A stretch of DNA of 64,000 bases, taken from positions 3,840,359-3,904,358 of the forward strand of contig NC_089272.1 of NCBI RefSeq assembly GCF_963678975.1. The letters run 5' to 3'. The notes under the pieces are model-generated. The model saw only the letters and a program-made list of their open reading frames with translations, had not been told where the DNA came from and searched no databases. Every line of letters begins with the position of its first letter. Within the stretch, counting starts at the first letter, position 1. Positions 24,178 to 64,000 of this stretch are shown in pieces. This stretch comes from Dysidea avara (Eukaryota; Porifera; Demospongiae; Dictyoceratida; Dysideidae). Position numbers and translations under genes: made by a program.

Positions 24178-24849
24178 TTACTTAAATAATTCAAAGATTG
24201 AAACTAGGGCACACTTATTCACATCCACCTCAACATTTGCAAGAGTCATAAATAAGTGCTCTATCCACTTTATAATTAATGTTGGTGCTGCTAATCCAAG
24301 AGCAATAGCCAAACCAAAAGATCTGCGATCAGAGCAAATAGCACCCACAAACACTGCTAGGCCTGTAAGAAGAATTATTATTACAAGGTCATCCATTGCT
24401 TCTGTCTCAGTATAGTACACGTATTTGGCAGCATCCATAACCAAAGTGAATAATATCAACACTGCTCCTAACCCTTCATCAACAAATCGCCCTCTGGAGA
24501 TGTCACTTAATGCTCCAGATGAAATGTATGATAAAAATCCATGCATTAACTCAAATATTCCATCAATTCCTTTACCTCTGTACAAACTATTTAACCCAGG
24601 GATTGGAATGATACTCAGTATCAGGGTAATTATCCAATAACTTCTTCCCTGTGATCTACAACTATCTGTGTCAAAGAAATAATCATATAAAAGCCATATC
24701 CAACTTCGCATTTTTTGGTCCCACAATCCACACAATAACCAGTACCAACACAACAGAGAAGAACTGCAAAAGAAATTCATATTATAGCATACCATAGGTA
24801 GCTACTGTGTTTATGACAACTTACATACTAACAGTATGAACAATTTCAT
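24178..24849 (-). CDS. Signal-peptide/TM2-like membrane protein family, copy 1 (one frameshift)
   Basis: Exon 1 (24849-24825) encodes MKLFILLV and stops in phase 1 at a GTAAGT donor. A 61-bp intron and a TTTTGCAG acceptor lead to exon 2 (24763-24178), which opens with LLCCVGTGYC, completing a signal peptide. The mature part has a cysteine motif, CRSQGRSYW, a TM2-like turn (PGLNSLYRGKGIDGIFELMHG), four hydrophobic stretches and the tail DVNKCAL. The tail runs eight residues past the usual family end. Between the first cysteine pair and SWIWLLYDYF one base is missing compared with the 38.6 kb copy (near 24697-24706, next to an A6 run), so the signal-peptide frame and the main frame do not join. 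It is either a recent pseudogene or a sequencing error. All other coding features are preserved. It is the only copy on the minus strand. Confidence 0.72.
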
Positions 24850-25264
24850 TGTTGAAGCAAATGTACTGCAGCTCTCTTTGATGAATTTACTATCTACTAC
24901 AACATTGGTGCATCACAACTTGGCATTCAGTTTAAGCAAATCTGTCAACTGTGCACTGTATATGCACTGATGTGATATTTATAATTATGCACATGTGTGT
25001 TGATATAAAAGTGCTGACTAATGACAGAAGAGATTTTTGTGGCTTAATGTAAGTATTCCCCTTGTATTTGACAATGTGATTATAACAACTGCTGCAATTC
25101 ACACCTAGCTGTTGTATTTGTATATCATAACCACAACCATGTACACCTATTTAATTTTTAGGAATCAGTAGTCCTTGTAATATTACTGTAAAAAGTTTAT
25201 TGAGAAGCTGTTACATGCAAACATAACAGTACGAATGATACACACTTTGCTTAATACTTTACAG

Positions 25265-25350
25265 CGGGTCCTGCCTTTACAGCAGCTGTAACAGATCCTG
25301 AACTTGAATTGTTTAGTGATGGTGCTGTGAGTGTGATTCACACACTGCAG
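25265..25350 (+). CDS. Orphan exon-like segment
   Basis: A TTTACAG acceptor is followed by an open phase-2 frame reading GPAFTAAVTDPELELF, then SDGAVSVIHTLQ, and a CAG/GTGAGT donor. The composition is protein-like, unlike the AT-rich surroundings. I do not recognise the protein and found no companion exon on either side. It may be a stranded exon of an unrelated gene or chance. Confidence 0.35.
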
Positions 25351-26475
25351 GTGAGTCTTCTGCCCTCTACGTAATCTCACTCATTTCATATCAATCTCAC
25401 TCATTTTCACTTATGTTCTCACTCAAAGTGATTTCCACCAGTTGAGAGTTCTGCTATTAGGGTATTTGAACGTTCTATTAGTCTAAGAGTATATTGATCT
25501 TTTTTCGCACTAAGTTTCAGCCTTACTCCAAGAATAATAATTTGGGTGTTGTAATTCTGAAGGGGGGCTTAGCCCCCCTTGGCGGACTAAGGGAGGCTTC
25601 AGCCCCCTAGCCCCCCCTTTCCACCGCCCCTGGTCACTGTATGTAGCTACCATTAAGAGAATGACTAATGGTGTTTTGTATTAACTGAAACAAAAATTAA
25701 TAGCACAATAGTATGTTTAAATGTTTTTCCAAGAAAATCACTGGATATAGCCACATGTATAATATTATATTCCATACTTCGCCATAAGGCTCATTTTGTA
25801 TCACATCCTTGTCTAACTGCAAAGGATTAATTGTGATTCTATCAAAATGGCATTTAGTATGCAGCTACAGTAGTTGAATGTAATAATTATACACAATGGC
25901 ATATCACTTACTGAGAAAGTCCATAAGCTAAAACTTTATGCCACTTAAAATAAGAATCTGTGGATGTGGTGGTGCTTTGTTAGTTAGTCATGATCACCAC
26001 TGGATCACCACTCTCAGGACTCTGCCCAGTCTGAGTATAGAAAGGGACTGTGTGATTTGTCTGTACACAGAGTATAAGCCTCAGCAGTTCATCAAATTTA
26101 TACTAAAATGTGTACACAGCTATGCCCATATTTTCTGTAGTGATTACAGAGACATTTCTGGTACTGTTCTTCGAGCTTCATTTGTATTGATGTGTAACAG
26201 GCGGAAGACAAAGCATAATGACCACTGCACTTTTCAGTAATGACTGAAGTATAGCGTACATTTTTAGCTATTCCCTTAACTACATTTTTATTCTTTGATC
26301 CCTAATCCAACTTTAAAAAATTCTATATAAGGAAAATTTTATTTATTTATTTTATTATTACTGTACAAACTCAGAATTGAGTATACCATACAAAAATAAA
26401 GAAAAACAATTGCGTAATTAAGGTAGTTAAATATTAAATTTACTTTTTGATCATGAATTTATGTTTATTCTTAAG

Positions 26476-26559
26476 TATCTATTTTATCCAAGTGCCATTA
26501 GACTTTGGAACAGCTTGCCAACTAACACAGTGACATCCACCATCCTTGAAATAATTTAG
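26476..26559 (+). pseudogene. LINE reverse-transcriptase C-terminal scrap
   Basis: The frame reads FYPSAIRLWNSLPTNTVTST and stops at 26559. This is the characteristic W-N-S-L-P end of CR1/L2-like LINE proteins. Nothing recognisable of the LINE precedes it. Confidence 0.7.
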
Positions 26560-26952
26560 TTTGCAACTGTCCGAATCATAATAGGTGACCCCTTATAGCA
26601 CTGTAAATGTTAACTAGCTGCATCCTTCAGGTGGGTTGGTGTCAACCAAATTGTTAGCTATATTATATATGTAATGGCATGGAGGCCATCACATCTATTT
26701 TGTAAGGTTTCCCACTGCAGATGTTGTAGCATGTCTGTCATGCTAGCAGTCCTACCATAATTACCATGCAGTCGCAAAATGTGTTTCCTGTCTCTGTACC
26801 ATCTCAATATTTAATATAATATGCCCATACACTGCAGGACTAGTGTAGTGCAGTATGGGGTGAACATAAGTAGTATAGAAGCTATAGGAGCATTTGACAT
26901 GACTTGCAGCATTTACACTAGTTACATTGCAGGAACGATGCTACCTTAATCT

Positions 26953-27740
26953 ATCATACAGGATGTAGTTGCTCTTCAGGATGATTTAAACACAATAATG
27001 CATGTAGATTGGCAAATGTCAGTTAACCCAAACAGATCTGTGTTTTTAAGGATTACAAACAAGGTCAAGTACATATTATCATCTGCTTACTGCTTGAGAA
27101 ATTGCCCAAATATAGGCACCAGCCTATTATGCTTTTAATTTTGCCTATTATGCTATGCTGCAGTGCTAAAAAATTTTGCCTATTATGCTCATAATTATGC
27201 TCAAAACTTTTTGCTACAGTTCCTATGCTTTGTGACTTTCTAATGGATAATGATAAACTTTGGCTTATGAACAACTGAAATGTACTCGTCATGCATTAAG
27301 AATTTAGCTACATTGTAAACTATAATAACAGTCATGTCTAATAACTACTTAATGCCATATGAGTGGCATCGACTGTTCTGTTATTGTAAATCAACCTTTT
27401 TCTGTGGCATGCATTTTTGCTTACAGTATGACAATTATTCTGCCTATTATGCTAGCATTATGCTTGATGCTTTCAGGCACCTATTATGCTCAAAATTATG
27501 CCAGCATAATAGGCTGGTGCCTACCCAAATACCCCTAGCAAATCATGCAAAATCCCTGGGAGTGATCATTGACAAACATCTAAACTGGACTGATCATGTT
27601 AACATGATAACAGCTACAGCAAATTCTGTAAGAGGATTCCTAAACGTAAATGTCCTAGCCATGTTAAATGCTCCTCCTATACTAAGGATCATAGAAAAAA
27701 GTAGTGAAACAAGGGAGGTTGCCAACACCTGCAGATAAAC
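26953..27740 (+). pseudogene. LINE reverse-transcriptase fragment split by a MITE
   Basis: Residues LQDDLNTIMHVDWQMSVN (from about 26974) belong to the RT segment after the catalytic box. SLGVIIDKHLNWTDHVNMIT and SVRGFL (from about 27555) belong to the thumb. The MITE at 27115-27521 lies between them. It is truncated at both ends and non-functional. Confidence 0.75.
27115..27521. mobile_element. MITE with GGCACCAGCCTATTATGC ends
   Basis: The inverted 18-bp ends are flanked by TA (27113-27114, 27522-27523). The inside is dense in CCTATTATGCT words shared with the element at 21042-21494, in the opposite orientation. It interrupts a LINE RT frame, which proves insertion. Confidence 0.85.
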
Positions 27741-29640
27741 TAGTGGACATTTAATCCATAATTCAGTCATGAGTATAGGCTGAAGTAGGGATTAATGTAC
27801 AATAGTAGTTATATCTGCAGGTGGGGTGATTTCCTTCAAATTTGGTATGTGCACTCCCCTATCTGACGGGCATCTCTACAGTACATTGTATTGAGCAACA
27901 CAGAGCTTTATGTGTATTGTGAGCTTTTACAGGTCTATGTAGTAAGGCTCAGTGTGGTTGCTAATTTTAGACTAGTATAACTTACTCAATTATGTACTGT
28001 CTCAATATAGTGAAGTTATAGTAGTAGGCTTAATGTATACAAGTAGTTATAATTGTATTCACTATTACCTTTGCCCAAATTTTCTAGGAATTCAATTTAA
28101 ATATAAGAGATAATTGTCGTGTACATGGTAGCAACATGAGAGTTCTAGATTTTAGAATGTTTGATGAATAGTGAAAGACTTTCTTACCACAAGATGCTGA
28201 ATCCAGGTAGCTACTGTTGTTCACACGTCCTGTAAGATCAACTGTAGGACAAGAGTTCCTGAATGGAATAAATCCTGCAAGGCAGGAAGGATGTCATGAA
28301 CTGATTGTATTTTGTTGTATATGTAGAGCGATTTTTTGTAATCTTGCCATTTTATTGTGTACTTTAACTACTTTTAAACTGTCACTATTGAATTCAAATC
28401 ATGCAGGGCTGACAATTTTTGTTGTAGAATCATCATAACAGAACTGTACATGATTAAAGATTAAAAGGCTCACCAGAAATACATCACAGTGTTCAAACAG
28501 CTCATACAGCTATTTTAAAATCTCTGCATGCATATTTGAAAATTGCGTGATTACAAAAAAACGAGCTTTATAATTCTGAGAAAGCCTTTCTATTGCCTAC
28601 TGTATTAGATACCACTTGCATTGGGCTATCAATAACGCAAGAACACTGGTCAATTATAGTATTAGCTGGCACACTGAAATCACTCCAAGCAATTAGTCCC
28701 ACTCATTTTTGACCCATGTACATATTAAATAGGGACCTGGTAGCTTTAATTTTCTTGACTGCAAGAAATTAGAAGACTATTATCAAGCTTAATAAAGGAA
28801 ATGATCACAGTAAGTGGAATAAGAAAAATATTAAAGCTGATGATACGTAACTGCATAACAAATAAGGAAATCTTTCCAAGTTTCTATGGTGTTTTCTAAC
28901 CAATGCCTTCAGCCAAACATTATTCAACAATGCATTATTCAACAGCATAAGGCTATGGGCTTGATTTTTTCACTGTTCAATGTTTCTTCATCTAGCGGCA
29001 GGCCATGCAACTGCAGTACATACAATACATGCATATTGTCCTCCTTTAATAATAATAATAGATGTGAGAGGTTTACATGCTCATTTAATATCAAGCTAGT
29101 AGGCTTTATGTTATGGTGCATGAGTAAAATGAAGAAGCCATTACAAGATCAAAAGTAATTAATTTCATGTGAATTATTTGCAGCTGCTTGTAACAAACAA
29201 AATTGTAACAATACAGATTATCCAAATACTGGGGAATGGTATTTGTATAACACTGGTCAATTCAATCACACAAGTGTCCAGAAAAGCATAAGTCAGCGGC
29301 AAATGTTGATCTTTCATATATCCACTTACTCCAATGGTATACACACAACATTATAATATTATGTAACTGAACAGATACTGTTGGCATTAAATAAAACAAA
29401 ATGATGTTTAAGGTGTTCAAGGCATTGACTCTCCTCTGTAATTTTCTTGTAAAATATTGTAGGTTTCACTTTATTCAAACAAGAAATTTTTGTTTACAAT
29501 TACCTATATAGTGGCTACATAATTATATTAACTGTATGCATTATAATTATGTTTATTCTGTTTCTTTTTATTCTTGGGCATATATGTACCAGCTGTGCTT
29601 ATAAATAAATATATAAAATAAATATGCAATGTAACAATTA
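27741..29640. other. No gene recognised
   Basis: This is AT-rich sequence. The longest frame (28217-28438) has no recognisable domain, and neither a promoter nor splice sites support it. A CAGCTGTGCTTATAAATAAA word near 29590 resembles the end of a LINE tail. Confidence 0.45.
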
Positions 29641-30318
29641 TTAATTAAATGCTATCCCACTAGGGACCTGTGAGAAGGCTAAAGCCTGTGAATACAGGGA
29701 GTCTGATTATGCTACAGTACATAGACCAGTGAAGTCACAGAGCATGGTGTTGTATATCTGCATGTATTGGCTAAGGAATAAGATGACCCTTAGCTTCTTG
29801 CTTGGTAGCTAATCACTGTACTTTAAAGGTGAATCATAAATTGTGAGTGAGATTTATAACAAATCTGTTTGTAACACTTAATTGCAGTGTACCAGAATTT
29901 ACAGTAGCAATATAGAAAGTACACTTTATAAGTTAATTTAAATACCAATATCATTGGACTTTTAATGGTAACCAAACAGCCAGGCAGCAGGTAAAATAGT
30001 ATGAGAATCCATACAGTGTGATAACTACTCAGCATGCATCCACGCTAACATGCATAGAGTTTCAGTGTCAATGAGAAACTCATGACATCACTGGTATGTG
30101 CTAATTACAATGTTTCTCTCCAATAACATGCCAAATTGACACTCACTTGTCAGCATGTACAATGGTTTTGAGGTACGTCAAGTAATAATTTGAGTTACTA
30201 CAATGTACATATGTGATTGAATACTCCTTGTTAATACACTGTATCTTAGTAACACACCAACATACCATCTATTGAATCATGCAGGGAATATTTGTCTTTC
30301 ACACCTGATCAGTTACAG

Positions 30319-30932
30319 CATAGATCCTTCATACCCCGGGATAGGAATCTCCGCATACTTGCTGTACTTACGTGCTGGACTATCCGCCGTGACCGTTATT
30401 GGTGTTGACTGGAAGGAGAAAACTCTGATCCATTGTTCTGTAGTGAATTTCGTGTTGTTTGATATAGTAATCTTGTTCTTTACTTCGAATAGTGATTGTG
30501 GACGCAAAAACAGTGACACAGAAAACTCGCTGACAGACCCAAGCGATTAAAACTTTGGCTAGCTGTAACTCTCGAATTGTTCACTCTATGAGCGTCAAAT
30601 TCAGTCCGTAAGTATAACTTGGGATAAGGAATCGAACCAGCGAAGTCATTAGTCCATATCTCCGTGTTCAAATCTTGTTGTTTGAGTGGCGGCGACAAAT
30701 TTTGCCGGCTAGCTCTACCCGCCTGAAACAACGTCTTCTTAACTTACAATTTGTTTCGTGTACTTATCCATCCTTTGTTAATCGAACTGAAGTAAACCCA
30801 TTGCCCGTACTGTCCACTAAACAGAGAATTAATACGCTAAAGTCGAGTTACTGATGCAAAGGTGTCAATGGAGGTGCGGATGGAAGTGTTAAAAACAGAA
30901 GATTCCAATACCGGGTGTGTAAAGGATCTATG
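30319..30932. mobile_element. 614-bp CATAGATCC-ended element with 7-bp target duplication
   Basis: The ends CATAGATCCTTCATACCCCG and, reversed, CATAGATCCTTTACACACCC are inverted copies that continue through GGNATNGGAATC. The 7-mers outside are GTTACAG and GGTACAG (one mismatch). The paralogous unit at 63.8 kb reads across the site. It shares ends with the 33-bp element at 19648 and the first seven bases with the element at 61260. Confidence 0.75.
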
Positions 30933-31013
30933 GGTACAGTGAAACTATAGTTACACCCATACAAATACATTCTTCATATAATTGCCAGATCAGCACTCAG
31001 TAAACTGGTCGTC

Positions 31014-31021
31014 TATAAATA
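31014..31021 (+). promoter_or_regulatory. TATA box in the conserved family promoter block (unit A)
   Basis: TATAAATA sits in a block also found at 52637 and 63931 (GCCAGATCA-CAC...GT-TATAAATA...TCACTGACCA). No family exon 1 follows within 200 bp. The nearest is at 32596, so this copy of the promoter may be displaced or unused. Confidence 0.55.
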
Positions 31022-31614
31022 TATAAGTCACTGACCACTTCATCAGTATTGTGCAAAAATGTATCTGCAGTATTTTGTGTGTACACAGCTCCTACAAGGT
31101 GACAGTAATCTGATGACATAATGGTCCTCATTTTGCAATCACACATCGCTGAAAGCTTACTTAAATTTGCTATATAAAATACAACGACATTGAATAGCAA
31201 CATAGTCATATTGATATGCATCTTTACACAGCCGCACATGCATTAGCACACTTTTGTTAGAGGTATTCCATTGTTTCCTCCTATAATATTTGGATATCAA
31301 ACCACCTAACTTAAACATTTGTCTAGTAACTGTATGTGCATGTGTGTTTTGTATGTGTTTCTTCGTGTTTTTCTTCTTTATGTAACTCCAAAAAGGAAGA
31401 ATGGCTTTGCAGATTGTTGAGAGGCTACAATAATAATCAATAAATTAATCCATACAATCTCAATGTTGCTTTACTTATTAATGGATGCACACTGTAGTTA
31501 CTATAATAACTAACACCGACCTACGTACGTATAAGAACAAACCATCTGTAACTAACTGCCAGAATACAACATATAAAAAGCCATTTATATACACTAGGAC
31601 AGGAAGATAATTAT

Positions 31615-31870
31615 CTAAACCAAAGCAACCAAGTTGTAAAGGAAGGTGCAACTTTTCAAAAAAACCAGGGTGAAAAAGTTGAGGTGGTGGCCAAGAAATA
31701 TATGTGGCAGTGATGGTATACGTTAATGGGGAAAAATTTAAGATAGGCAATTCTGATGATTTACTGAATGTGCTGCCTCCTCCAAGGATTCTGCACCAAA
31801 TTCACCTGAATTGTCGTTATTAAATTTTTTTGCCATTTACCTACATCAGGGTAGCATATCTCCAGAAGCA
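31615..31870. mobile_element. Diverged palindrome fragment of the composite element
   Basis: The left half shows AACCAAGTTGTAAAGGAAGG and GGTGGTGGCCAAGAAATA. The right half contains TTCACCTGAATTGTCGTTAT. These are recognisable parts of the palindrome at 40075-40390, heavily mutated and without the minisatellite. Confidence 0.65.
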
Positions 31871-32595
31871 GGGGTAGCTATGGGGGCTATGTTCCCAAAA
31901 GCTGTAATCATTTCAGATTTTGTAATCCAAAAACTTTATCAGAACAATTTAAAGGCATAAAATTATAATGCAGTAGCTAATATTTGACTTTATATTATTT
32001 TTAATAATGTTGGACTACAAGCTACATAAGAGCAAAGTCTTCTTGTGTACAACACTAGAACTGATAACATGTATCATTAAATAGAATGAAACGTAATAGT
32101 TAGAAGGAAGTTCATTATCTAATATGTGCATGGAGAAGAAATAAAAAGGAAAACTACAAGAAGAAGCATACAGTTTTGTGCAATTCACATCGCAATGAGC
32201 ACCTAACAAGTCTTATCATATAGACACAAGCTTGGGTGAAAGAAGGGACTAAAGACATGCAGGGGTTGCAAAAGCAACTTATTAATAAGTATTATAACAA
32301 TTTTTCAAGTAACATCAGGTATTACATCATATATAATTATCACCTATTAATAGCAGGCATGGGACATTTTAGCTAGTGAGCAAATGCTATAGCAATAAAC
32401 CACAAAAAGTCCCTGCACATCATTGTTGGCCACATTTGCATAGCCTGCATTTTTAAAACAATATAATACAGTATATGCATGGTAGCTACAGTGTATATAG
32501 TGAAGTATTTGGTATATAGTGGAAGCCACGGTATATTCTGGACCTACAGTACTATATACTGTATATTTGCATACATATAGCATGTGCAATTAGAT

Positions 32596-33972
32596 ATGGC
32601 AAGATTGCGTTTTCAGAGTCTATTCATTCTCTTGTGTAAGTGTTCCAGTAGCTATATATACAGGAATGTGGTATATACTGTTGTATTGCTGTATAATAAT
32701 TTACATTATAAATAATATAGCCGCTATGATTGTATGCATGAAAAGATTTTTCTACTATACATTATGAAAGGTTGCTTATTATTATAGTAATCATTTTTAA
32801 TTTCCTAGCTAGTGAATCTCTTCAGTGACAGCAAGTCCTTGAAATTAGGTTAGGTAATCCTAAGGCTGCAGCACATGTTACTGTCAGACCTTCAGTGCTG
32901 GTCACTGTGAAGTGTTATAATAATAAATACTTTGGGTTTAAGGAAGAAAATCCATCCCTCCTGGAGGAAGACTGAGTGTAGACATTGGGTTACGTGCAGT
33001 TCGAATCCTGGGGTTGGAGGGATTTTTTCCTTACTTTGGCCCCTTTTCTGTTACACCTTATCAGTCATTAAGTCAAGTCATTAAATCAGTCATTAAGTCT
33101 AAGTCCTTGAAACTAGGTTAGGTAATCCTAAGGCTGCAGCACATGTTGCTGTCAGACCTTTAGTGCTGGTCACTGTAAAGTGTTATAATAATAATAATAG
33201 TAATAAAAAGCTCATCTTATTGCCTTATTGTCCATCAGTCATTATGATAACTATGTAGATCTAAAATATTGCTAGCTATACCATATGTAGTAAACCATTA
33301 TACTAAAGTAGATTGTACTGATAAAGCGTCCGTGATTACACCTGTTGCAGTAGTTAGATATGTACTACAGATTCATATTTGTTTCTTAATGTAGTTCTAT
33401 GTATTTTGAGTTGTGGTTACTGTGATGACAGCAAAGATGATTGTAGCAACAGATTATGCAATAGCTGGCATGACTACTTTCATGACAAAGAGAACTGTAG
33501 ATCACAAGGAGGAGTTGATAAACACACCATGCATTTGTTGAGCTTTCTGCCTTTTGGATTTAGTAGCTTCTACAGAGGAGAAATATTTGATGGAATTTTT
33601 GACATTTCACTGGGAACCTTTACTCTAGTTTCACTACTGCTACGATGTTGTTGTAATGAGTCTAGACGAAACTCTGATTGCAGTGGTACAGTGATAGCTT
33701 GGAGTGGTCTGATTATAAACATTTCAATTATCATCTTGAGTGTAGTAAAGATCATAATATGTGGAGAAATATTTGAGATTTTTGTAATCCCTATCACACT
33801 CGTATTGTCATGCCTATTCTGTTGTTCTAGTCATCCTGTAGAACGGGAGAAAGAATTGATTTGTGGAATAATATGTTTCACAACGTCGATGCTATTATTA
33901 GAAATCATTAAACATGTAGCAATGGCATATTCTGACTATGAGGTAGATGCAAGTGGATGTCCTCTGGTATAA
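32596..33972 (+). CDS. Signal-peptide/TM2-like membrane protein family, copy 2 (intact)
   Basis: Exon 1 (32596-32635) encodes MARLRFQSLFILL and ends in phase 1 at GTAAGT. Exon 2 (33395-33972) follows a TTCTTAATGTAG acceptor and opens with LCILSCGYC, completing a signal peptide. The total is about 205 residues. The mature part has DDCSNRLCNSWHDYFHD, then CRSQGGVDK, the TM2-like turn GFSSFYRGEIFDGIFD, four hydrophobic segments separated by cysteine-rich links (LLRCCCNESRR, LSCLFCCSS), and the C-terminal DASGCPLV. The frame is uninterrupted. The intron (759 bp) is long for this family because two SINEs sit in it. Function is unknown. The TM2-like motif and the secretory leader suggest a multi-pass membrane protein entering the ER. 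Confidence 0.82.
32808..32936 (+). mobile_element. SINE, 5'-truncated copy
   Basis: From about 32838 it matches the 3' body of the adjacent SINE over roughly 100 bp (GGTTAGGTAATCCTAAGGCT and GTCAGACCTTCAGTGCTGGT), ending in ATAATAA. It lies in intron 1 of family copy 2, in direct orientation. Confidence 0.7.
32955..33204 (+). mobile_element. tRNA-derived SINE
   Basis: The head is tRNA-like over 68 nt (32955-33022): acceptor halves TCCCTCC and GGAGGGA pair perfectly, and a B-box AGTTCGAATCC precedes the 3' half. T6 follows. The D arm is degenerate and the T stem is weak, so it is not a working tRNA gene. The body runs through CTAAGGCTGCAGCACATG to a TAA microsatellite. A tail fragment of the same family is at 9700-9757. 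Confidence 0.6.
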
Positions 33973-35040
33973 CTGTGGCATATTTAACTATGTAGTGTAA
34001 AATGTAGTTACATCATGTACATTCCACCTATAATGTATTGTAAATGCTTTAACACCATTGATGAATATTCCTTCAGCGCCATGACTGGGATCTGACTCTA
34101 ATATACTGTAAGTAGGTCCTCAGACCCTGCAATTGTGTTAGTTATGACTTTGAACAGCATGACATAACATAGTCACACAAAATAGCAAGCACAGTAAACA
34201 CAGACATTAATTAAGTTAAGCCATTACCAAGGTGGTTTGATGAGTTACATGATAGCTGCATAGCTGTAGAGTGTACTTTGTGAAGCACCAACTGTAAACA
34301 GTTGCAAATTATGTGTTATGTATATAGCTATGTAATTATAACAAATGTGTAACTTGCACAATGATTCACCACTGACACATGCAATTTGAATTACACTGCT
34401 TTTTTGAAATGCAAATATGCATGGCATTCTGCATTAAGGAAATTATGTGAATCTTGATTCACTGACAACGTAATGACATTATCAATAGGGATAAGAAGGC
34501 ATTCCTTCTAGTGTTTAGTAATTACTTCAACCATGCAGGTATGTACTGTAACAAATGTGTGCAGGTAAGTAAATGCTTTTAGAAAGCAGCATGAATAATT
34601 CTCTTTGATGTTGACACAGTTAATGAGGTTATTAATACCACTTAGAGACCTGAGGTAAGGGCTCCAAGTTTCATTTAGAGACCTCTTGTCACGTGAAATT
34701 GTTATGGTAAATTCAGCAACACTCCAAAGAGTTTTCTATGTCACTGATTTAATTAGTGGTTGTATGGTTAGTGAGAGTTGGGTTTTTACCTTCATCAGCC
34801 ATACCAGCACTAGACCAATCTAGCCATCAACCGAAAGAGCCAGCTGCTCGATGCATATCACAGTTACCCCAACAATGTTCACATTCACAACTAGCTAGCC
34901 ATCAGTGAAACTACTGGTGTTGCGAGTTTGCAGCAAGCCATTTACGTTCGTCTGCTTGTCAGCACTGTCGCCATTGTACCATTAACACACTTCAGCTATG
35001 CTATTGCGCCTGTTTGTAACATCTGTCACTCTGTGGCTAG
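33973..35040. other. 3' flank of family copy 2; nothing further recognised
   Basis: After the stop, CTGTGGCATATTTAACTATG recurs after the family units near 47320 and 63130, so about 50 bp of 3' flank is shared. The rest shows no credible coding sequence. Confidence 0.5.
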
Positions 35041-35430
35041 TTATAAAGCCTGTAGTTTCGTGGCCAGCTGTTATAAAGCTTGTCGCTTCGTGGCCAGGTT
35101 ATAAAGCTTGTCGCTTCGTGGCCAGCTGTTATAAAGCTTGTCGCTTCGTGGCCAGCTGTTATAAAGCTTGTCGCTTCGTGGCCAGCTGTTATAAAGCTTG
35201 TCGCTTCGATTCGTGGCCAGTTGTTATAAAGCTTGTCGCTTCAATTAGTGGCCAGTTGTTATAAAAAGCTTGTCGCTTCGTAGCCAGTTGTAATACAGCT
35301 TGTCGCGTTGTAGCTAATAAAGCTTATCGCTTCGCGGCATCAGTTGTAATAAAGCTTGTCGCTTTGTGGCCAGTTGTAATACAGCTTGTCGCGTTGTAAT
35401 AAAGCTTGTCGCTTCGTGGCCAGCTTGTAT
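35041..35430 (+). repeat. Minisatellite of roughly 30 bp
   Basis: About 13 units of TTATAAAGCTTGTCGCTTCG plus TGGCCAGCTG are present. The left end is homogeneous, with indels and degeneration rightwards. The reading frame through it (KACRFVASCY repeated) is an artefact of the repeat. Confidence 0.9.
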
Positions 35431-35590
35431 TAGCCAGTAAACAAGCTTTGGACCTAAATAACAGCTACTAAAACAACACTAACCTGGCCACTAAGCCGGC
35501 GACACAAGCAAACACGCTGTAAAGGACCTTACCTAGCGTGACTCTGTGCTTCTTTTGTCAGTGCTGGTAACGAGCTGCTTTCTAAATAGG

Positions 35591-35752
35591 TTAGATACCC
35601 ACTGTCGTTTTTTAGTAGGGTTGAAACCCTCGTGCTTGGTTTGGCACCTCGGCTGCGCCTCGGTCACTAATTAATGCCACGCCTCGGTGACCAAACCGCG
35701 CCCTCGGGTTGTCAACCCTACTAATTTAAAAAAACCTCCAGTGGGTATCTAA
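35591..35752. mobile_element. Palindromic MITE with TTAGATACCCACTG ends
   Basis: The inverted ends are TTAGATACCCACTG and CAGTGGGTATCTAA. Inside, TAGTAGGGTTGAAACCCTCG pairs imperfectly with its inverted partner, and the centre is a GC-rich CTCGG palindrome. The target duplication is unclear. Confidence 0.7.
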
Positions 35753-38636: not shown

Positions 38637-39245
38637 ATGCATGACAATTGTACTCTACTACTGTACTTCATCTTCATTGTAGTCCTTCTTTGTTGTATTG
38701 GCACTGGATACTGTGCAGAGTGTGGTAGCAAATACTGTGACAGTTGGACAGCCTTTATATTTGACACAAATGATTGCAGATCAAAGGGAAGAGTGTACTG
38801 GGTATATACACAATTGTGGAGCTTGGTGCCTTTAACTGGATTAAGCAATTTTCATATTGGAAAAAGACTTGATGGAGCTGTAAAACTTTTTCATGGGTTT
38901 GCTACATTTATACTAGGAGCTGCAATGGGAGATATCTTGAACAGCAAACATGTTAAAGATGATGGGCTCAGTGTATGTATGGCATCTACTGTTCTGATAG
39001 TTGACATGGTGAAGGTGGTGTGGGATTACTTCACAGAGAAAGAAGCACTAAGTGAACTTATAATAGTTGTGATTGCACTTCTTATATCAGGATGCATACT
39101 TGCTATCATTCCTGAAGATAGAGTACGGTTTATCTGTAGTGCATTTGCTCTAACAGCATCTCTAGGAGTACTGGAATGGCTGAAGCACATTGTGATGATA
39201 TACTTCAACATAGAACTGGATATAAATGGATGTGCACTACTTTGA
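38637..39245 (+). CDS. Signal-peptide/TM2-like membrane protein family, copy 4 (intact, start uncertain)
   Basis: The open frame gives 202 residues from the ATG at 38637. The start region MHDNCTLLLYFIFIVVLLCC is itself a plausible signal peptide. The other copies have an intron acceptor at the matching place, and here too TCATCTTCATTGTAG precedes the conserved LLCCIGTGYC. The natural product may therefore use a distant first exon starting exon 2 at 38683, or former intron sequence may have become coding. The mature part has CAECGSKYCDSW, then CRSKGRVYW, the TM2-like LTGLSNFHIGKRLDGAVKLF, four hydrophobic segments and the tail DINGCALL. It is the closest relative in the window of the minus-strand copy at 24.2 kb (both have CRS-GR-YW and -SELI/-DDLV links). 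Confidence 0.8.
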   Translation: MHDNCTLLLYFIFIVVLLCCIGTGYCAECGSKYCDSWTAFIFDTNDCRSKGRVYWVYTQLWSLVPLTGLSNFHIGKRLDGAVKLFHGFATFILGAAMGDILNSKHVKDDGLSVCMASTVLIVDMVKVVWDYFTEKEALSELIIVVIALLISGCILAIIPEDRVRFICSAFALTASLGVLEWLKHIVMIYFNIELDINGCALL

Positions 39246-46180: not shown

Positions 46181-46850
46181 ATGAGACTCTTGTTCATCAC
46201 CTTTATGTAAGCATTATAGTTTGGTGCATATAACATGCAAACTTTTCTGTGTGTATGACAGTTCTTTGTTACATTGGATTGGCTACAGTGAATGTCATGG
46301 TGGCAGCAAATATTACAATTTATATGGCCTGACTACTATAACAATAAATATTTGTGCAGAACAAAAGGACAAGTTGATAAGGCCACAGTGATAGTGTTAA
46401 GCTGGACACCTCTCACAGGTTTAAGTAGTTTCTACAGTGGGAAGCACTATGATGGAATATTTGAGGCAATAGCTACATGGAACCAGTGCAACAATCTTAC
46501 CTTGTATATGTGCTGCTGGCACAGTGAGCAATTCACATTATATTGCATTGCTCAGGGTGTGGAGCATGTATGATTTGGATAATTGTAATTGTTGACATGA
46601 TAAAGATAGCCATAACATTGACCATGTGAAAGTGGGTGGAGTTCATTATCATGATTATCTCATTCATATTATCATGCCGTTCATGGGATGAATTTGCCCA
46701 ATATAATATTATGGATCTTGCTGCAAGGGTCCTAACAGCATCATTAACAGTGATGGAATTTATTTATTTATTTATTAAGGCTTTACAGCAATGGATAAAA
46801 CCTGTACACATCATCAATGTGATAGGGAGTTGGCCCAGTTGGGTATAAAT
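46181..46850 (+). pseudogene. Signal-peptide/TM2-like family, broken copy 5
   Basis: Exon 1 (46181-46206) keeps MRLLFIT and a GTAAGC donor but is one base longer than in the 61.2 kb copy. A 55-bp intron ends in GACAG at 46261. Exon 2 has lost one base near 46278, then recovers a frame with DYYNNKYLCRTKGQVDKATV and the TM2-like LTGLSSFYSGKHYDGIFEA. Further indels follow after 46470. A stop replaces the segment near 46627, and a 31-bp LINE tail interrupts the last hydrophobic segment at 46760. It is clearly derived from the same duplication as the intact copy at 61188-62690. Confidence 0.85.
46760..46790 (-). mobile_element. Minimal LINE 3'-end insertion
   Basis: The paralogue at 62.6 kb reads straight through. 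Here TTATTTATTTATTTATTAAG plus GCTTTACAGCA is inserted between ATGGAAT and ATGGAT, an imperfect target duplication. On the minus strand this is a terminal scrap with an AATA tail like the LINE tail at 10185. Confidence 0.6.
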
Positions 46851-47749
46851 CGATGCAATCATCTATCTAGATGTATATACTGTAACAGAGTGTGTAGTAG
46901 TTGGTGAAAATAAGTATGCTGTAGCATAAATTTTGAGGTGATATTACCGTACTTTTATACATGATCACCAGATCAGCTTTTTTTTTTCTCAGGAGGTATT
47001 ATAGTTAATTAGCAATTTTTCAACATCATAAGTACCTGTTACATGTATCATGGTCTTGCTCAAGCTTGTGAACCTTTGATTGAGGAAACCCATGCAGAAA
47101 GGGATTGCTGGTTGATGCAATATAAACTAATTATTTCTGGTAGTATAGCATTAAAACCTGAGGTGAATTTTGCCATCTGCAGTATGAGATAAGGAAATGA
47201 TTTGTGGAATATTGTGTTTCACAATAATATTATCAGAGATTGTATGCTGAGAATGTAGCTAGCAATGGTATTACTTTAACATGAAGTGAAGGCAAATGAA
47301 TGTCCTCCCATGTAACTGTGACATATTTAACTATGTATATGTACGTATAATGTCACATCATAGATTACACCACATATAATTACAATGTATAACTTCATTA
47401 GTAGAATGCATTCCATTTACAATGATTTCAACACTATAGATTGATCGTGATTAGCTAACAATCACATTAACAATAGGAATAATCTTGTTTGGTACTAACT
47501 TAAAGATGAGTCATATAAATTGTACATCATGTGAGTGTGGTTTACGTAAGATTACTTAATTGCTGTTCTACAGAGTTTGCAGCAGCAATTTTGTAATAAG
47601 AAAATATACCCAATCACATTTATACATTGATTTAGATTCTGTGGACTCATAAAACCCAAATCATTGGACTCTTAACAGTGACCAGGCAGTTAAAGTATAT
47701 GTAATGTGAGAATCCTTATAGCATAGATATATAACTAAGCGACATGCAT

Positions 47750-50169: not shown

Positions 50170-52570
50170 AAAATCAGACACTTCCTACAGACTGGCTATC
50201 TGCTAACATTGTACCGATCCACAAGAAGGGTAACAGAAACCTGGCATCCAACTATAGGCCTATTTCTCTTACATCTACATGTTGTAAAGTAATGGAGCAT
50301 ATTGTATTTCATTTCATAATGGAACATCTCAACAACAATAACATCATTAATAAGCATCAACACAGTTTCAGGCCTTCTCATTCCTGTCAAAGCCAGCTAC
50401 TGCTACTAACCGATGATATTCTTAAAGCTATGGACGAAAAGAAGCAAGTAGATCTGATCTTTTTAGATTTTTGCAAAGCCTTTGATAAAGTGCCACATAG
50501 ACGGCTATTAAACAAACTAAAGCACTATGGAATTACTGGTAACCTTGTTAAATGGATAGAGCAATGGCTGACTAAAAGAAACCAACAAGTAACTCTAGAA
50601 AATCATGTGTCAAGTAAACTACCCGTAAAGTCTGGAGTTCCACAAGGAACCGTATTGGGACCTCTCATGTTTTTGTTGTACATTAATGACATTGATGAAA
50701 ACATTTCTTCAACTGTTCGGCTATTTGCTGATAATTGCGTTATGTATAGGATAATTGATTCCTTAGAAGATTCACTGTGCCTTCAAAGAGACCTCAGTAT
50801 CATTCTTAACTGGACTAAAAAGTGGCAGATGCAATTAAACATTGACAAATGTGTAGTATTAAGGTGTACAAGATCAACATCTCCCATTAATTATGACTAT
50901 AATTTAAATGACGAAACTCTTCAATTAACAGAACAACATCAATACCTGGGACTTATTTTTCATGAAAGCATGCAATGGTCGCATCATATTCAAGCTATGT
51001 GCATTAAAGCAAACAGATCCTTAAATTTTCTTCGGCGCAACTTAAGTAAATGTAGTAGTAATGTCAAGCAAAATGCCTACATTACCATCATAAGACCATT
51101 GTTAGAGTATGTAGCTTGTGTCTGGGACCCTTATCATGAATACTTAATATATGACATAGAAAAAATCCAACGACGTGCTGCAAGATGGGTCCTTTCTGAT
51201 TTTAGTTGGTACAGTGGTGTGTCAGATATGTTGAACTTCCTTGAATGGCCAACCCTACAAGAGAGAAGTAGCGATTCCGGAATTCCGTAAATTTTGCATA
51301 AAATTTTCTCCGTGAACCTTCCATTGGAGAGTTGGCACAATCAATTCGCTGCCATACGAGTGATTGATCAAACAATTGGATCGTTTTTAGGGTTTCTGGG
51401 GGCAAGGAATACGATGGTGCAGTTAGTTTTCTGCTACAAATATGTTTGTGCGGAGTTTTATGCCAATTATAATATTATTTTGCAATATAGCCACCACAAT
51501 GTTATGTTCTCTTTGCAAGAAACAACCCAGCACATGTTAGTTACACCAAGGTGAACATTTTTGTCCATGTAGTTTTCAATATTACTATGCTAAAAGTCAA
51601 CAAATTTGCACCACAAATAGCTCATCTCTTTGATGCACCATTTTGGTAGCTGTCAAGGAGCTGCACATTAAGAGAAAAAATAATCATATAAGCAGCTATA
51701 AATCAACAGTACAACTCGTTGCTTTGTATGCACATGGTATTATTGAGTGGAGGTGACTGGTACAGAGTGGTTGCACTTCACCATGCGTATGCTGTATTGA
51801 CATCCACAAGATGCTAAATGCATATGACTATTTAATGGCTTTCTATGGAGGTGACCTTTATTCAGAGGGTCTTACAAGTATGGTTACACTGTGGCCCATG
51901 TATTAAGGTATTTATAACAGAAAACAGAAGTTCAAAATGTAATAGCAAAGCTCAGCTATAAGCATTTGTTCAATTGTGCCATTTTTGGGACCTTTTTCAA
52001 TGGAAAGATATGGAGAAAATTTTGCCTATTTTAAAGGACAAAATTGCTTATAACTCCACCATTCTATGACGGATTTTTAAAAACTAAGTGTTTATGAGAT
52101 CCTTAGGGAGTACTGCACAAGGCTATGCTAAATAAAAACTATTTCCATTAATTTTAAAATTCTCCCGGAATCGCTAAGAGAAGACACATTAATAGGTTAA
52201 GCCAATTTCACAAAATCGTTCATCAGCTTACTCCTTCCATACAGCTACCATCTTATTTCTTACCAACTCAGTATCCAACTAGACAGCTTCATCAACATCG
52301 ATTTATAATCCCAGTCAGTTCCACTGTATCGTATCAGAAAAGCTTCTTTCCGAATACTTTAAGAGAATGGAACACTTTACCTAACAACTTTATTGAAGAG
52401 CAATCCACAGAAATTTTTACCAACCACCTTGTCATCACACAATAAATAATTTTATGTATGCATGTATATGTTAAATGTTTTTTTTTGTCTGTAATTACCT
52501 GGGTCAATTATCAGCTGTGCTGTCTCGACCCAGTATATAATCATAATCATAATCATAATCATAGTATCTA
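50170..52570 (+). pseudogene. 5'-truncated CR1/L2-like LINE reverse transcriptase with mutated active site
   Basis: The frame opens near 50170 (WLSANIVPIHKKGN, then NYRPISLTSTCCKVMEHI) and runs to 51270 as fingers, palm and thumb. Landmarks are FLDFCKAFDKVPHRRLL, SGVPQGTVLGPLMFLLYIND, TVRLFADNCVMY and QYLGLIF. The catalytic box reads FADN in place of YADD/FADD, so the second metal-binding aspartate is lost. A 904-bp MITE (51271-52174) interrupts it. The C-terminal part resumes at 52177 in a compatible frame with NTLREWNTLPNNF and stops near 52443. The 3' end is a TAATCA microsatellite at about 52540. Endonuclease and N-terminal parts are absent. Confidence 0.85.
51271..52174. mobile_element. 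904-bp TA-flanked element in the LINE
   Basis: The ends GCGATTCCGGAATTC and, reversed, GCGATTCCGGGAGAA are flanked by TA (51269-51270, 52175-52176). The LINE frame is continuous if the element and one TA are taken out, which fixes both ends. It encodes no protein of its own. Confidence 0.85.
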
Positions 52571-53077: not shown

Positions 53078-53139
53078 CAACTATCATAATACATGTAATA
53101 GTACACTGTAAAAACGATTTTGTCAAATTGTTTGTTAAC

Positions 53140-53209: not shown

Positions 53210-53214
53210 TTGAT

Positions 53215-57301: not shown

Positions 57302-57437
57302 GTAGCTGTTGCCATCCATGCATGACAAATAACTTCATATAATTTTATTTGTATGTGAATTATTCTCACTGTGTACATAGTTTGCAAACTGCATGTAATA
57401 TTATGAACTCTTGCTAATATGCTGAAAAACATAAGTG

Positions 57438-57803: not shown

Positions 57804-57810
57804 TCCATGA

Positions 57811-61187: not shown

Positions 61188-62690
61188 ATGAGACTCTTGT
61201 TCATCACCTTGTGTAAGTTGAAGTAATTATGACAAGTATTATAGTTTATTGGATATAACCATAGATAATAGAGTAAAGGGATAGGAAACGCAAGCGATTT
61301 CCGGTTTGATTTCCGTTACGCGTGACTTGATAGGACAAGACAGTTTTGTGCTCAAGCATGAGAATTAGTGTTCTAAGCAGCGTAAATAGTAATCCAACAG
61401 ACTACAGCAAGTATTTAGGCCTATGTGAGAGATTTTGGCGAGAGAATTCAGACCGTAGATTTTGTAACAAAGCGTATCGCATTAACCGTGGTTGTTACAC
61501 GCTGTCACACTTTCGCTCATAGTACCTTCATGCCTCGTCCATACCGCTTCTTTTATAGCCGGTTCCACTTTCGAATCTTGTAGTAAGCTAGGCGTGTCAC
61601 CAACACAGTCTTTTACCGTTGCGTTGTACTGCAAGGTGGTTTAAACTTTTGGTTAAAAATGGAAGATACTTAGTCGTTTCTTCAAGCAACAGTTCCTGTT
61701 TTGCTCCGATATTTCCTCTGGTTCCCTCTGTTAAATGGTAAGGAATAGGTTTATCACAGTTAAAAGGATAGAATATATTTACGAAGAAAATAAAGTGGTT
61801 TAAAGTAATTTTTGGGCCGTTTTTTTCACTTTCAATCTCCTTTAATTTTGCGTATAACTTCCTTGAGGGTTGGTACCATCCTATTTCCCTCGATTACTTA
61901 CTTGAGTTCACTGTAGCGAAGTTTCACAGTCGTTGGTTACAAAATTCTGTCTTTACAACAATTTGTTTCTCTTTGATACAAGCGCAGCAAGCGTAACGAG
62001 TATGTTCGTGACGTAATACGCGAAATTCCAATAGAAGTGTGCGTATTTGTGACGTCACGTTATTGCGTTTCCTATCCCTTTTAAGTACTCTATTATCTAT
62101 GATATAACTTATATACAAAAATTCTTATGATAGTTCTTTGTTGCATTGGAATTGGCTACTGTGAGCCTGAGTGTGGCAGCAAATATTGTAATACATGGTC
62201 TGACTACTATAACAATGAAGACTTGTGCAGAACAAAAGGAGGAGTTGATAAGGCCACTATGATAATGCTAAGCCGGATACCCTTCACAGGTTTCAGTAGT
62301 TTCTACAGTGGGAAACACTATGATGGAATATTTGAAGTAATTCATGGGATCAGTACAATTATCTTAGCTTGTGTGGCCTGCGCAGTGAATAGTTCACATC
62401 ATAATGATTGTACAGGGTGTGGAGTATGTATGATTTGGATAATTGTAATTGTTGACATAATGAAGATAGTTGAAGCATTCATTGTGGGAAACTGGGTGGA
62501 GCTCATAATCATCTTTATCTCATTCATATTTTCATGCTGTTCATGGAATAAAATTGTAGAAGATAGAATCAATTGTCCCCGTGCTGCATTGGTCCTAACA
62601 GCATCATTAACAGTGATGGAATGGATAAGGCACATTGTCAATGTGAGGCTTGACTGGGAGTTGGATGTAAATGGATGTAAACTTTTGTAA
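61188..62690 (+). CDS. Signal-peptide/TM2-like membrane protein family, copy 7 (intact)
   Basis: Exon 1 (61188-61212) encodes MRLLFITL and ends in phase 1 at GTAAGT. Exon 2 (62134-62690) follows TTCTTATGATAG and opens with LCCIGIGYC, completing a signal peptide. The total is about 193 residues. The mature chain has PECGSKYCNTWSDYYNN, then LCRTKGGVDK, the TM2-like FTGFSSFYSGKHYDGIFEV, hydrophobic segments around IIVIVDIMKIV and LIIIFISFIFSCC, and ASLTVMEWIRHIVNV before the tail DVNGCKLL. The frame is clean. The intron is 921 bp only because of an 842-bp transposon; without it the intron would be about 70 bp, as in copy 5. A TATTTAAACA stretch near 61078 could serve as promoter. The function is not known. 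Confidence 0.85.
61260..62101. mobile_element. 842-bp CATAGAT-ended element in intron 1 of family copy 7
   Basis: The inverted ends CATAGATAATAGAGTA and, reversed, CATAGATAATAGAGTACTTA both lead to AAAGGGATAGGAAACGCAA. The 7-mer ATATAAC is duplicated exactly outside (61253-61259 and 62102-62108). The paralogous intron at 46207-46261 holds a single ATATAAC and no element. A 7-bp duplication with CATAG ends most resembles P-superfamily elements, but there is no transposase to test. Confidence 0.85.
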
Positions 62691-63930
62691 GAATAGTGTA
62701 GAAATTGTATCTAGCTATAGCAAATAGTGTAACAAATTGTGAAGTAGGTTTTTAAGGTGAAAATAAGTACGTATGATGTAATAATTTTTTTGAGGTAGCT
62801 ACTATTACTGTATACTTTTCCACATGGTCACCAGATCAGCTTCTTAATTTCTCAGGGAATTTTCAACATACGTATCATCTAATATCATAGCCTTTCCCCA
62901 GTTGGCGAACCCTTGAGGAAACCCAGAAAGGGATTGCTGGTTGATGTAAAATAAACTAGTGACAATTAGACAGATTTAAAACCTGAGGTGATTTGTCATC
63001 TGCAAGGAAATGATTTGTCATCTGCAAGGAAATGATTTGTGAAATATTATCAGAGATTACTAAAAAAGTAGCAATGGTATTATACTTGACCATGAAGTGG
63101 AGTCAAATGAATGCCCTCTCATGTAACTGTGACATATTTAATCACATGTACACATGTACTATAATGTCACATTATAGAGTACACCACATGTATCATCACA
63201 GTTGCTAACTTCATTAGTAGATGCATTTCACTTTCAATGATTTCAACACTATTGATCGATCATGATTAGCTAACAACCACATTATCAGTAGGAATAATCT
63301 TGCTTGGTAGCTACTAACTTAAAGTGATCATGAGTCGTATAAATTGCACATCATGTGAGTGTGGTTTATGTCAAATCTGTTCATAGCTAACACTTAATTG
63401 CTGCTCTACGAAGTTCACAGTAGCTATTTTGTTATTAGAAAATACCCATTCACAAATTCATTTAGATTCTATGTACTGATAAAACCCAAATCATTGCCTT
63501 CTTTATAGTAACCCAGCAGCCACGCAGCAAGTAAAGTACTGTATATGCTGTAATATGAGAATCCTTACAGTGTAGTATAACTACAGTGTAGTATTAACTA
63601 AGCAACATGCACTCTTACTAACATGATATTATGAGACTACTAAAATTGACACTGTCTTAGCTTGTCGGCACATTTATGGTTATGAAGTATGGGTAATATC
63701 TTTAACTACAAGTACACAATTATGACACTCCTTGTTAGTACATTGTATTTTTAGTAACACACATACCATTTACTACATGGGGAAATCCAGGGGTATTTTT
63801 GTTATTCACACCTGATTAGCTGCCATAATAAATATACTTAACCACAATGCAAACCATACAAATGCATTCTTCACATTTTGTCACATCAAAATTTTTGCCA
63901 GATCAACACTTTCTCAGTAAGCTGGTTGTC

Positions 63931-63938
63931 TATAAATA
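63931..63938 (+). promoter_or_regulatory. TATA box of a further family unit at the right edge
   Basis: TATAAATA is preceded by GCCAGATCAACACTTTCTCA and followed by GGTCACTGACCATTTGTG. The same arrangement precedes exon 1 of the torn copy at 52783. The window ends 62 bases further on, before an exon 1 would be expected. Confidence 0.6.
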
Positions 63939-64000
63939 TGTAGGTCACTGACCATTTGTGTTTGTTGTGCAAATACAGTAATATTAAGTGAATGTAGCTT

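What the first reader, a model, noticed from the sequence alone, without database searches (positions are those of the whole stretch)
24178..64000. Expanded family of secreted/multi-pass proteins with a TM2-like turn and a cysteine signature
Seven copies or relics share gene structure and motifs: a phase-1 intron inside the signal peptide; C-G-x-K-Y-C-x2-W-x10-C-R-[ST]-[KQ]-G; G-[FL]-[SN]-[SN]-[FL]-[YH]-x-G-[KE]-x2-[DF]-[DG]-G; four hydrophobic segments; and a C-terminal D-x2-G-C-x-[LV]. The turn resembles the TM2 domain (G-x-HRFYLG-x3-GI), but the cysteine frame around it is not one I can name. Three intact, one frameshifted and three dead copies within 40 kb point to birth-and-death evolution, as expected for immune-type, recognition or allelic-diversity genes. 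Function is inference only.
Basis: partly seen in the sequence, partly recalled or inferred. Interest (0 to 1): 0.82.

Follow-up and report, generated by a model that had tools for sequence, protein, structure and literature searches.

The report
Divergent TM2-like membrane gene cluster
A run of small membrane-protein genes in an animal-like genome appears to be a fast-changing, repeatedly copied offshoot of the TM2 protein family, whose human members are linked to Notch signalling and Alzheimer's disease; the few comparisons possible show no sign of the rapid selection expected of immune genes.

Summary
In detail: seven loci (three intact, one frame-broken, three relics). The intact copies share a signal peptide, the cysteine motif, a G-x-[SN]-[SN]-[FL] turn and D-x2-[GK]-C-x-[LV] near the end; two of three show the phase-1 intron. 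The cluster runs about 22 kb past the window; an intact copy lies on C4. Pfam TM2 does not match them.

Another protein set in this genome has Cys-rich ectodomains, a GAANFY turn and a C-x-L end; 31 of 31 aligned members hit Pfam TM2 at E <= 0.1. Profile-profile comparison joins the two sets (probability 95-96%, E about 1e-8; score 58-61 against at most 30 in 400 permutations). Paralogues in the same genome look intermediate. Adding TM2 relatives raised AlphaFold pLDDT from 56 to 78.

So this is most likely a derived TM2 branch with a shortened ectodomain, an inserted transmembrane hairpin and a tandemly duplicated two-gene unit. Birth and death is real. Immune-type diversification is not supported: dN/dS is 0.45 and 0.47 in the two unsaturated pairs, and three subfamilies have close relatives outside this assembly. 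Function is inferred only: perhaps membrane-protein trafficking, as reported for TM2D3 and Notch.

The parts
24825..24849 (-). Exon 1 of copy 24178 (start of signal peptide), phase-1 donor GTAAGT
   Evidence: sequence and splice model
24178..24763 (-). Exon 2 of copy 24178; reading frame is broken within the cysteine motif; the long downstream part is open; groups with the C4 copy and P0004
32596..32635 (+). Exon 1 of copy 33358 (MARLRFQSLFILL)
33395..33972 (+). Exon 2 of intact copy 33358; relative P0007, from outside this assembly, is 70% identical
38637..39245 (+). Intact copy 38613 read from an in-frame ATG (202 aa); exon 1 of the two-exon model not found; relatives P0002 (66%) and P0003 (69%)
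46254..46794 (+). Dead copy, relative of 62103
47188..47330 (+). 3' relic of a 33358-type copy, co-duplicated with the gene upstream
   Evidence: protein match alone weak
61188..61212 (+). Exon 1 of copy 62103 (MRLLFITL)
62134..62690 (+). Exon 2 of intact copy 62103
63083..63141 (+). 3' relic of a 33358-type copy (DNA similarity only)
   Evidence: (family D12)
62101..63496 (+). Two-gene duplication unit (62103-type gene plus downstream relic), matching 46254-47737 (72%, for 62126-63583) and 80224-81616 in window coordinates (79%, outside the window)

Best explanation
The genes encode a derived, tandem-duplicating branch of the TM2-domain protein superfamily. The product enters the secretory pathway by a signal peptide. 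A short Cys stub (C-x2-[KR]-x-C ... C-R) faces outwards. It is followed by the TM2 helix hairpin with a cytosolic G-x-[SN]-[SN]-[FL]-x2-G turn, an inserted helix hairpin that the TM2 relatives lack, and a last helix ending in [EK]-[WI]-[IL]-x-H...D-x2-[GK]-C-x-L, the counterpart of the relatives' W-W-I-A-D...D-G-x-G-C-x-L. Shown: family, gene anatomy by sequence, duplication and decay, profile-level similarity to TM2 proteins with controls, and no sign of gene-wide positive selection. Inferred: topology and a structural or disulfide role for the Cys stub. Most likely mechanism (inferred, about 30%): like TM2D3, it associates with partner membrane proteins in vesicles or the ER and controls their delivery to, or uptake from, the cell surface, with the copies specialised for different partners.
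For: (1) hhalign of the family (A2, 11 rows) against 31 TM2 proteins (A3): probability 95.6%, E 1.2e-8, score 60.6, covering CR-Cys, turn and C-terminus in order; against 13 (A5, which shares rows with A3): 96.0%, E 3.9e-9. Controls: reversed profiles 15.0 and 15.1; 100 ten-column shuffles max 31.9, 100 twenty-column max 27.3, 100 full max 19.9; with gap-rich columns dropped, real 61.4 (A3) and 58.4 (A5) against a best of 30.3 and 24.4 in 200 hydrophobicity-class permutations each. (2) Sub-blocks against A5: Cys plus turn 94.8%, turn alone 72%, C-terminus alone 34% (E 4e-4), middle 0.2%. (3) Pfam TM2 matches 31 of 31 rows of A3 at E <= 0.1; L032 9e-9 (over the cut-off), L037 0.0017, L043 0.002, L040 0.077 (all below it): a gradient towards the window family. 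(4) Ungapped stretch from Cys to turn: 12 of 30 residues identical between copy 62103 and L040, 14 of 30 with L043. (5) A tree on an alignment that already assumes homology puts these own-genome paralogues on the family's side of the branch to the other TM2 proteins (93/100, not starred). (6) AlphaFold2 of copy 38613: pLDDT 56.1/pTM 0.44 with the 11 family rows, 78.5/0.68 with 10 of them plus 17 TM2 relatives. (7) Two further divergent matches end in D-G-x2-C like TM2: 65064 minus strand ...EEMDGTGCLFL and -14 kb ...GLDGHDCLLL; a third, 64129, does not. (8) L037 has a candidate phase-1 intron in its signal peptide (1 of 5 such loci examined). Function by analogy: TM2D3 binds Notch1 and raises its surface level (PMC10684865: abstract and section 5 read).
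Against: No family member matches the Pfam TM2 model: 0 of 11 at E <= 5 and 0 of 8 at E <= 10, though the program drops most matches above about 0.1. Against the own-genome paralogues alone the profile match is weaker: 84.7% (A4), 79.5% or 91.7% by direction (A6), 74.4% with gap columns dropped. The C-terminal block alone is weak. The Cys motif C-x2-[KR]-x-C is at the right place in only 8 of 31 TM2 rows. The TM2D hallmark DRF is absent. The family stem in the tree is very long (2.97 changes per column). Neither model gives a Foldseek match at E <= 0.001 in the PDB, nor the second in the viral library, where one weak row was named TM2 (Fadolivirus, E 1.9). No control with real, unrelated multi-pass families was run for hhalign or AlphaFold. 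Only 1 of 5 TM2 loci examined showed the signal-peptide intron. Nothing here tests trafficking.
Confidence: 0.7

Rival explanations
1. An unrelated multi-pass family that converged on a TM2-like turn and a cysteine near each end.
For: No Pfam TM2 match in 11 of 11 members; low absolute identity (17-28% of copy 38613 to the TM2 rows); no control with real unrelated membrane families was run.
Against: Collinear profile match at E about 1e-8, at least 28 score units above the best of 400 permutations; intermediate paralogues in the same genome; better model when TM2 sequences are added.
Confidence: 0.13
2. A rapidly diversifying immune, allorecognition or symbiont-recognition gene family.
For: Clustered, unequal copies with many relics; cell-surface type architecture.
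Against: dN/dS 0.45 (24178 against the C4 copy, dS 0.47) and 0.47 (62103 against the 80 kb copy, 123 codons, dS 0.13); ectodomain reduced to a short Cys stub; three subfamilies with relatives outside this assembly. Gene-wide dN/dS cannot exclude selection on a few sites, and one partner in each pair is broken.
Confidence: 0.1
3. A family under relaxed constraint that is dying out, with no important present function.
For: Three relics and one broken copy among seven in the window, more broken copies beyond it; dN/dS of 0.45-0.47, higher than is usual for strongly constrained genes (the comparison is recalled).
Against: Three open window copies and one on C4, with shared motifs and, in three of these four, matching splice signals; relatives at about 66-70% identity in contigs from outside this assembly.
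Confidence: 0.12

Closest known systems
TM2 proteins of the GAANFY / WWIADLVIF / DG-x-GC-x-L type (Pfam PF05154; here L032 and the 28 of P0009-P0056 aligned in A3)
   Same: Signal peptide, membrane-proximal C-x4-5-C pair (31 of 31), hydrophobic segment, G-x-x-N-F-Y turn, last helix with W, C-x-L close to the C-terminus (31 of 31).
   Different: The window family has a much shorter ectodomain, mostly S-S-[FL] in place of A-A-N-F-Y, [EK]-[WI]-[IL]-x-H in place of W-W-I-A-D, and an inserted hydrophobic hairpin; Pfam TM2 does not detect it.
Own-genome paralogues L037, L038, L040, L043 (contigs C1 and C6)
   Same: C-x2-K-x-C (4 of 4), C-x3-G, then F-T-G with the same spacing as in 62103, and a D-G-x-G-C-x-L end (4 of 4); L037 has a candidate phase-1 intron in the signal peptide.
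   Different: Fuller Cys-rich ectodomain, GA[AT]NFY turn, no extra hairpin; three tested (L037, L040, L043) are still marginally seen by Pfam TM2 (E 0.0017-0.077, below the cut-off).
Animal TM2D1-3 (fly amx, amrt, bisc; TM2D3)
   Same: Signal sequence, divergent ectodomain, two membrane helices joined by a short cytosolic turn (PMC8714088, passages read). Two TM2D-like genes exist elsewhere in this genome (L030, L031).
   Different: TM2D proteins carry DRF in the turn and occur as three separate genes per model species (PMC8714088, abstract start seen); the window family lacks DRF, has extra helices and is a multi-copy cluster.

Membership tests
Pfam TM2 domain (PF05154) | Score over the curated cut-off of the PF05154 model | tested here: not met
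   0 of 11 family rows match even at E <= 5, 0 of 8 at E <= 10; the genome-wide PF05154 search returned four places, none in the cluster
TM2 superfamily (broad sense, homology) | Significant profile-profile similarity to recognised TM2 proteins | tested here: met
   hhalign probability 95.6-96.0%, E 1e-8 to 4e-9, permutation controls clear; weaker, 74-92%, against the own-genome paralogues alone; TM2 rows of A3 31 of 31 at E <= 0.1
TM2 superfamily (broad sense, homology) | Helix - short turn with Gly and aromatic - helix hairpin | tested here: inconclusive
   AlphaFold2 model: H55-62, H69-74 (turn), H77-102, mean pLDDT 78.5; profile search of A3 against PDB sequences found no TM2 structure
Animal TM2D1-3 | DRF motif in the intracellular loop | tested here: not met
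   G-x-[SN]-[SN]-[FL]-x2-[GR] in 11 of 11 rows of A2; definition from PMC8714088
Animal TM2D1-3 | N-terminal signal sequence and ectodomain | tested here: met
   splice models and hydropathy; in silico only, no signal-peptide program run
Animal TM2D1-3 | Role in Notch surface presentation or phagocytosis | not testable with these tools
   needs cell experiments
Immune or allorecognition diversity family | Excess of amino-acid-changing substitutions | tested here: not met
   of 15 pairs: dN/dS 0.45 and 0.47 in the two unsaturated ones; 0.25-0.50 in 11 with near-saturated dS; two gave no dS. Gene-wide only
Immune or allorecognition diversity family | High allelic polymorphism within the species | not testable with these tools
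   one assembly only

The most novel reading that the evidence does not exclude
A lineage-specific radiation of TM2 proteins with a new five-helix layout, made by inserting a membrane hairpin into the TM2 core, in which each paralogue has become a dedicated escort or co-receptor for a different surface receptor, so that one genome holds a diversified TM2 'partner code' next to its canonical TM2D genes.
Probability: 0.15. Interest if true: 0.7.

Novelty: new variant of a known kind. Interest (0 to 1): 0.42.

Why it matters
TM2D proteins are linked to Notch signalling and Alzheimer's risk, yet the molecular functions of their domains are described as unknown (PMC8714088, passages read). A lineage that has copied TM2 proteins many times and built a hairpin into them offers natural variants that show which parts of the fold are dispensable (DRF, long ectodomain) and which persist (Cys pair, turn, C-terminal C-x-L). 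It also shows that the Pfam TM2 model can miss a whole branch, so TM2 counts in little-studied animals may be too low.

Tried and rejected

Sequence search: single-sequence and profile search (only the 7996 candidates sharing most words scored) of the protein collection gave only the family itself (3 and 8 proteins, the window's own included). Pfam strays in the family: Aa_trans in 2 of 11 (best E 0.0045); none of the strays listed reaches its cut-off. NCBIfam: three single matches, best E 0.0037. PDB by sequence: none for A2, one row at E 0.25, a cytochrome oxidase subunit, for A3. Phage records: none. Viral contigs with A3: 37 pattern matches, none confirmed. hhalign with the single sequence L032 was too weak (probability 1.1%) until relatives were added.

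A first permutation control gave scores up to 140; one such case was opened and was a nine-column end-gap artefact. It was redone with gap-rich columns dropped; the artefact run is not counted as a control.

A first motif count was too generous: C-x2-[KR]-x-C in 16 of 31 TM2 rows and the C-terminal motif in 10 of 11 family rows included matches elsewhere in the chain. Recounted at the right place they are 8 of 31 and 9 of 11.

Rejected: the 38613 ORF as proof against the two-exon model (a distant exon 1 or a true loss are both possible); shared intron phase as strong evidence of kinship (1 of 5 loci, and phase-1 introns in signal peptides are common; the latter recalled). The tree is used for order only, because its alignment already assumes homology.

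Literature: searches with TM2 domain/sponge/gene family expansion, TM2D/Notch/almondex, TM2 domain/sponge, TM2 domain-containing/expansion/Amphimedon/choanoflagellate/protist and PF05154/sponge/Porifera/TM2 showed no paper on a TM2 expansion of this kind among the rows listed; listings only, open-licence library only.


Full report
What was checked. The window is bases 3,840,359-3,904,358 of contig C1 in a 550.8 Mb, 108-contig assembly. The assembly is unnamed.

tblastn joins copies at 24178-24801 (-), 33358-33972, 38613-39245 and 62103-62690 (+) and a relic at 46254-46794 with cross E-values down to 1e-41 (HMM). Two 3' relics, near 47188-47330 and 63083-63141, rest mostly on DNA similarity. 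In four loci (33358, 62103, 24178 and the C4 copy) I read an exon 1 ending inside the signal peptide with a phase-1 GTAAGT donor and a matching acceptor. Spliced, 33358, 62103 and C4 give open proteins of 205, 193 and 202 residues; 24178 stays broken. For 38613 my filter found no exon 1, and its ORF carries its own start and signal peptide. There is no transcript evidence.

Beyond the window, in window coordinates, further copies lie at 64129-64677, 65064-65642 (-), 66191-66773 (broken), 80211-80809 (broken), 81175-81267 and 85358-85677, with a weak match at -14.0 kb. The first two are open but have lost the CR and turn motifs. A copy open by splice model is on C4:6,545,308 and a fragment on C6. 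A block holding a 62103-type gene plus a downstream 33358-type relic was duplicated: 62101-63496 matches 80224-81616 at 79%, 62126-63583 matches 46254-47737 at 72%, and the 3' part matches 68942-69542 at 74%. That is tandem birth and death.

What it is. No Pfam family fits: 0 of 11 rows match TM2 at E <= 5, and the strays are inconsistent (best Aa_trans, E 0.0045, 2 of 11). The genome's own PF05154 hits led to the answer. One of them (L032, C10) is a 207-residue protein (from its ATG) with signal peptide, Cys-rich ectodomain, LLSVFLGGVGAANFYIDRDGLAVGQL and a C-terminus AWWIADLVIFANNDRDDGSGCKL.... Forty-eight relatives came back from the protein collection at E <= 1, and more paralogues from this genome. 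In an alignment of 31 (A3: 28 of the 48 plus L032, L037 and L040), 31 of 31 match Pfam TM2 at E <= 0.1; not all reach the curated cut-off.

Profile-profile comparison of the window family (A2) with A3 gave probability 95.6%, E 1.2e-8, score 60.6, aligning the CR cysteine, the turn and the C-terminus in order. With A5, an overlapping 13-member set weighted to the own-genome paralogues, it gave 96.0% and E 3.9e-9. Against the paralogues alone it is weaker: 84.7% (A4), 79.5% or 91.7% by direction (A6), 74.4% with gap columns dropped. Controls: reversed profiles 15.0 and 15.1; column shuffles at most 31.9, 27.3 and 19.9 in 100 each; with gap-rich columns dropped, real scores 61.4 and 58.4 against at most 30.3 and 24.4 in 200 hydrophobicity-class permutations each. 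A control with real unrelated membrane families was not run. Cut into blocks, 'Cys plus turn' reaches 94.8%, the turn alone 72%, the C-terminus alone 34%, and residues 100-160 nothing (0.2%), all against A5. I read that middle stretch as an insertion.

Bridges exist in the same genome. L040, L043, L037 and L038 keep a GA[AT]NFY turn and a DG-x-GC-x-L end but also have C-x2-K-x-C (4 of 4) and C-x3-G, as in the family. L040 and copy 62103 share 12 of 30 residues without a gap from that cysteine to the turn, L043 and 62103 share 14 of 30. Pfam TM2 sees three of these only marginally (0.0017, 0.002, 0.077). In the wider TM2 set the cysteine pair C-x4-5-C is there in 31 of 31 rows, but with K or R at the family's position in only 8 of 31. 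A tree on an alignment that assumes homology puts L037, L040 and L043 on the family's side of the branch to the other TM2 proteins (93/100, not starred), with a very long family stem. Two divergent matches in the cluster end in D-G-x2-C, as many TM2 proteins do; a third does not.

Anatomy. AlphaFold2 on copy 38613 gave pLDDT 56 with the 11 family rows and 78.5, pTM 0.68, with 10 of those rows plus 17 TM2 relatives. The better model has helices 55-62, 69-74, 77-102, 111-133, 137-157 and 161-189 after the signal peptide and two short helices in the stub. The inserted stretch is thus a two-helix hairpin (111-133, 137-157), and inserting an even number of helices would leave the sidedness of both ends unchanged. 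Hydropathy of the C4 copy shows five segments after the signal peptide, L032 three; in 38613 and 62103 some segments fall below the threshold. By analogy with TM2D (signal sequence, turn in the cytosol; PMC8714088, passages read) the Cys stub faces out and the C-terminus in; this is inference. No PDB structure matched either model at E <= 0.001, nor a viral-library model the second.

Selection and conservation. Nei-Gojobori dN/dS is 0.45 for 24178 against the C4 copy (dS 0.47) and 0.47 for 62103 against the broken 80 kb copy (123 codons, dS 0.13). Of the 13 other pairs, 11 have dS of 1.3-2.5 with ratios 0.25-0.50 and two gave no dS. One partner in each unsaturated pair is broken, so these ratios may be inflated. 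P0002 and P0003 group with 38613, P0004 with the C4 copy, P0007 and, less firmly, P0008 with 33358. Searches of this genome with 38613 and P0007 found no place as close to them as these (next best 41%; best 70%), so the relatives of these two groups come from other genomes, whose names the collection does not give; the three subfamilies therefore probably predate a species split. This looks like maintenance of distinct members with turnover, not an arms race, although a few selected sites cannot be excluded.

How it most likely works. The best-tested relative I read about is TM2D3, which binds Notch1 and raises Notch at the cell surface; the tagged protein sits in small vesicles, mostly apart from ER and Golgi markers (PMC10684865: abstract and section 5). 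I propose, at about 30%, that the window proteins are escort or trafficking factors for partner membrane proteins. Every step after 'multi-pass secretory-pathway protein of TM2 descent' is inference.

Known or new. It is not a Pfam TM2 member by the curated cut-off and not a TM2D protein (no DRF), but it is most likely homologous to TM2 proteins. I file it as a new variant of a known kind: a derived TM2 branch with a reduced ectodomain, an inserted hairpin and a tandem cluster. Five literature searches showed nothing on such a branch among the rows listed (open-licence library, listings only).

Noticed in passing
G000 C1:55.801-55.821 Mb, C1:33.58 Mb, C4:7.87 Mb, C4:47.68-48.55 Mb, C5:27.52 Mb, C6:22.30 Mb, C10:28.73 Mb: About 14 places match the GAANFY-type TM2 proteins, including a tandem group on C1 (some with stops) and five spread places on C4, four of them with stops in the longest stretch, some at weak E-values: perhaps a second TM2 expansion in the same genome.
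   Followed up: partly
window 39242 (copy 38613), 62687 (62103), 33969 (33358): Three intact copies end exactly in C-A-L-L, C-K-L-L and C-P-L-V, which resembles a prenylation (CaaX) signal if the C-terminus is cytosolic (resemblance recalled); other members carry longer tails, so this may be chance.
   Followed up: no
window 20247-22600 and 40540-45200: Two large arrays of a 31-base satellite in opposite orientation flank the 24178-38613 part of the cluster (arms up to 95% complementary).
   Followed up: no
window about 21040-21496: The left satellite array is interrupted by a stretch with 15-base terminal inverted repeats (TAGGGACCCGCCGAT), like a small non-autonomous DNA transposon (seen by eye).
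   Followed up: no
window 50025-51290, 10275-11414: Retrotransposon pieces: a reverse transcriptase ORF (RVT_1, E 6e-35) and a zf-RVT-like ORF (below the Pfam cut-off).
   Followed up: partly
window 35040-35423: Short array of about 30-base repeats (GTTATAAAGCTTGTCGCTTCGTGGCCAG).
   Followed up: no
window 118-429 (-): Piece of a TatD-type DNase gene (Pfam TatD_DNase E 1e-9) running into a simple TG repeat.
   Followed up: no
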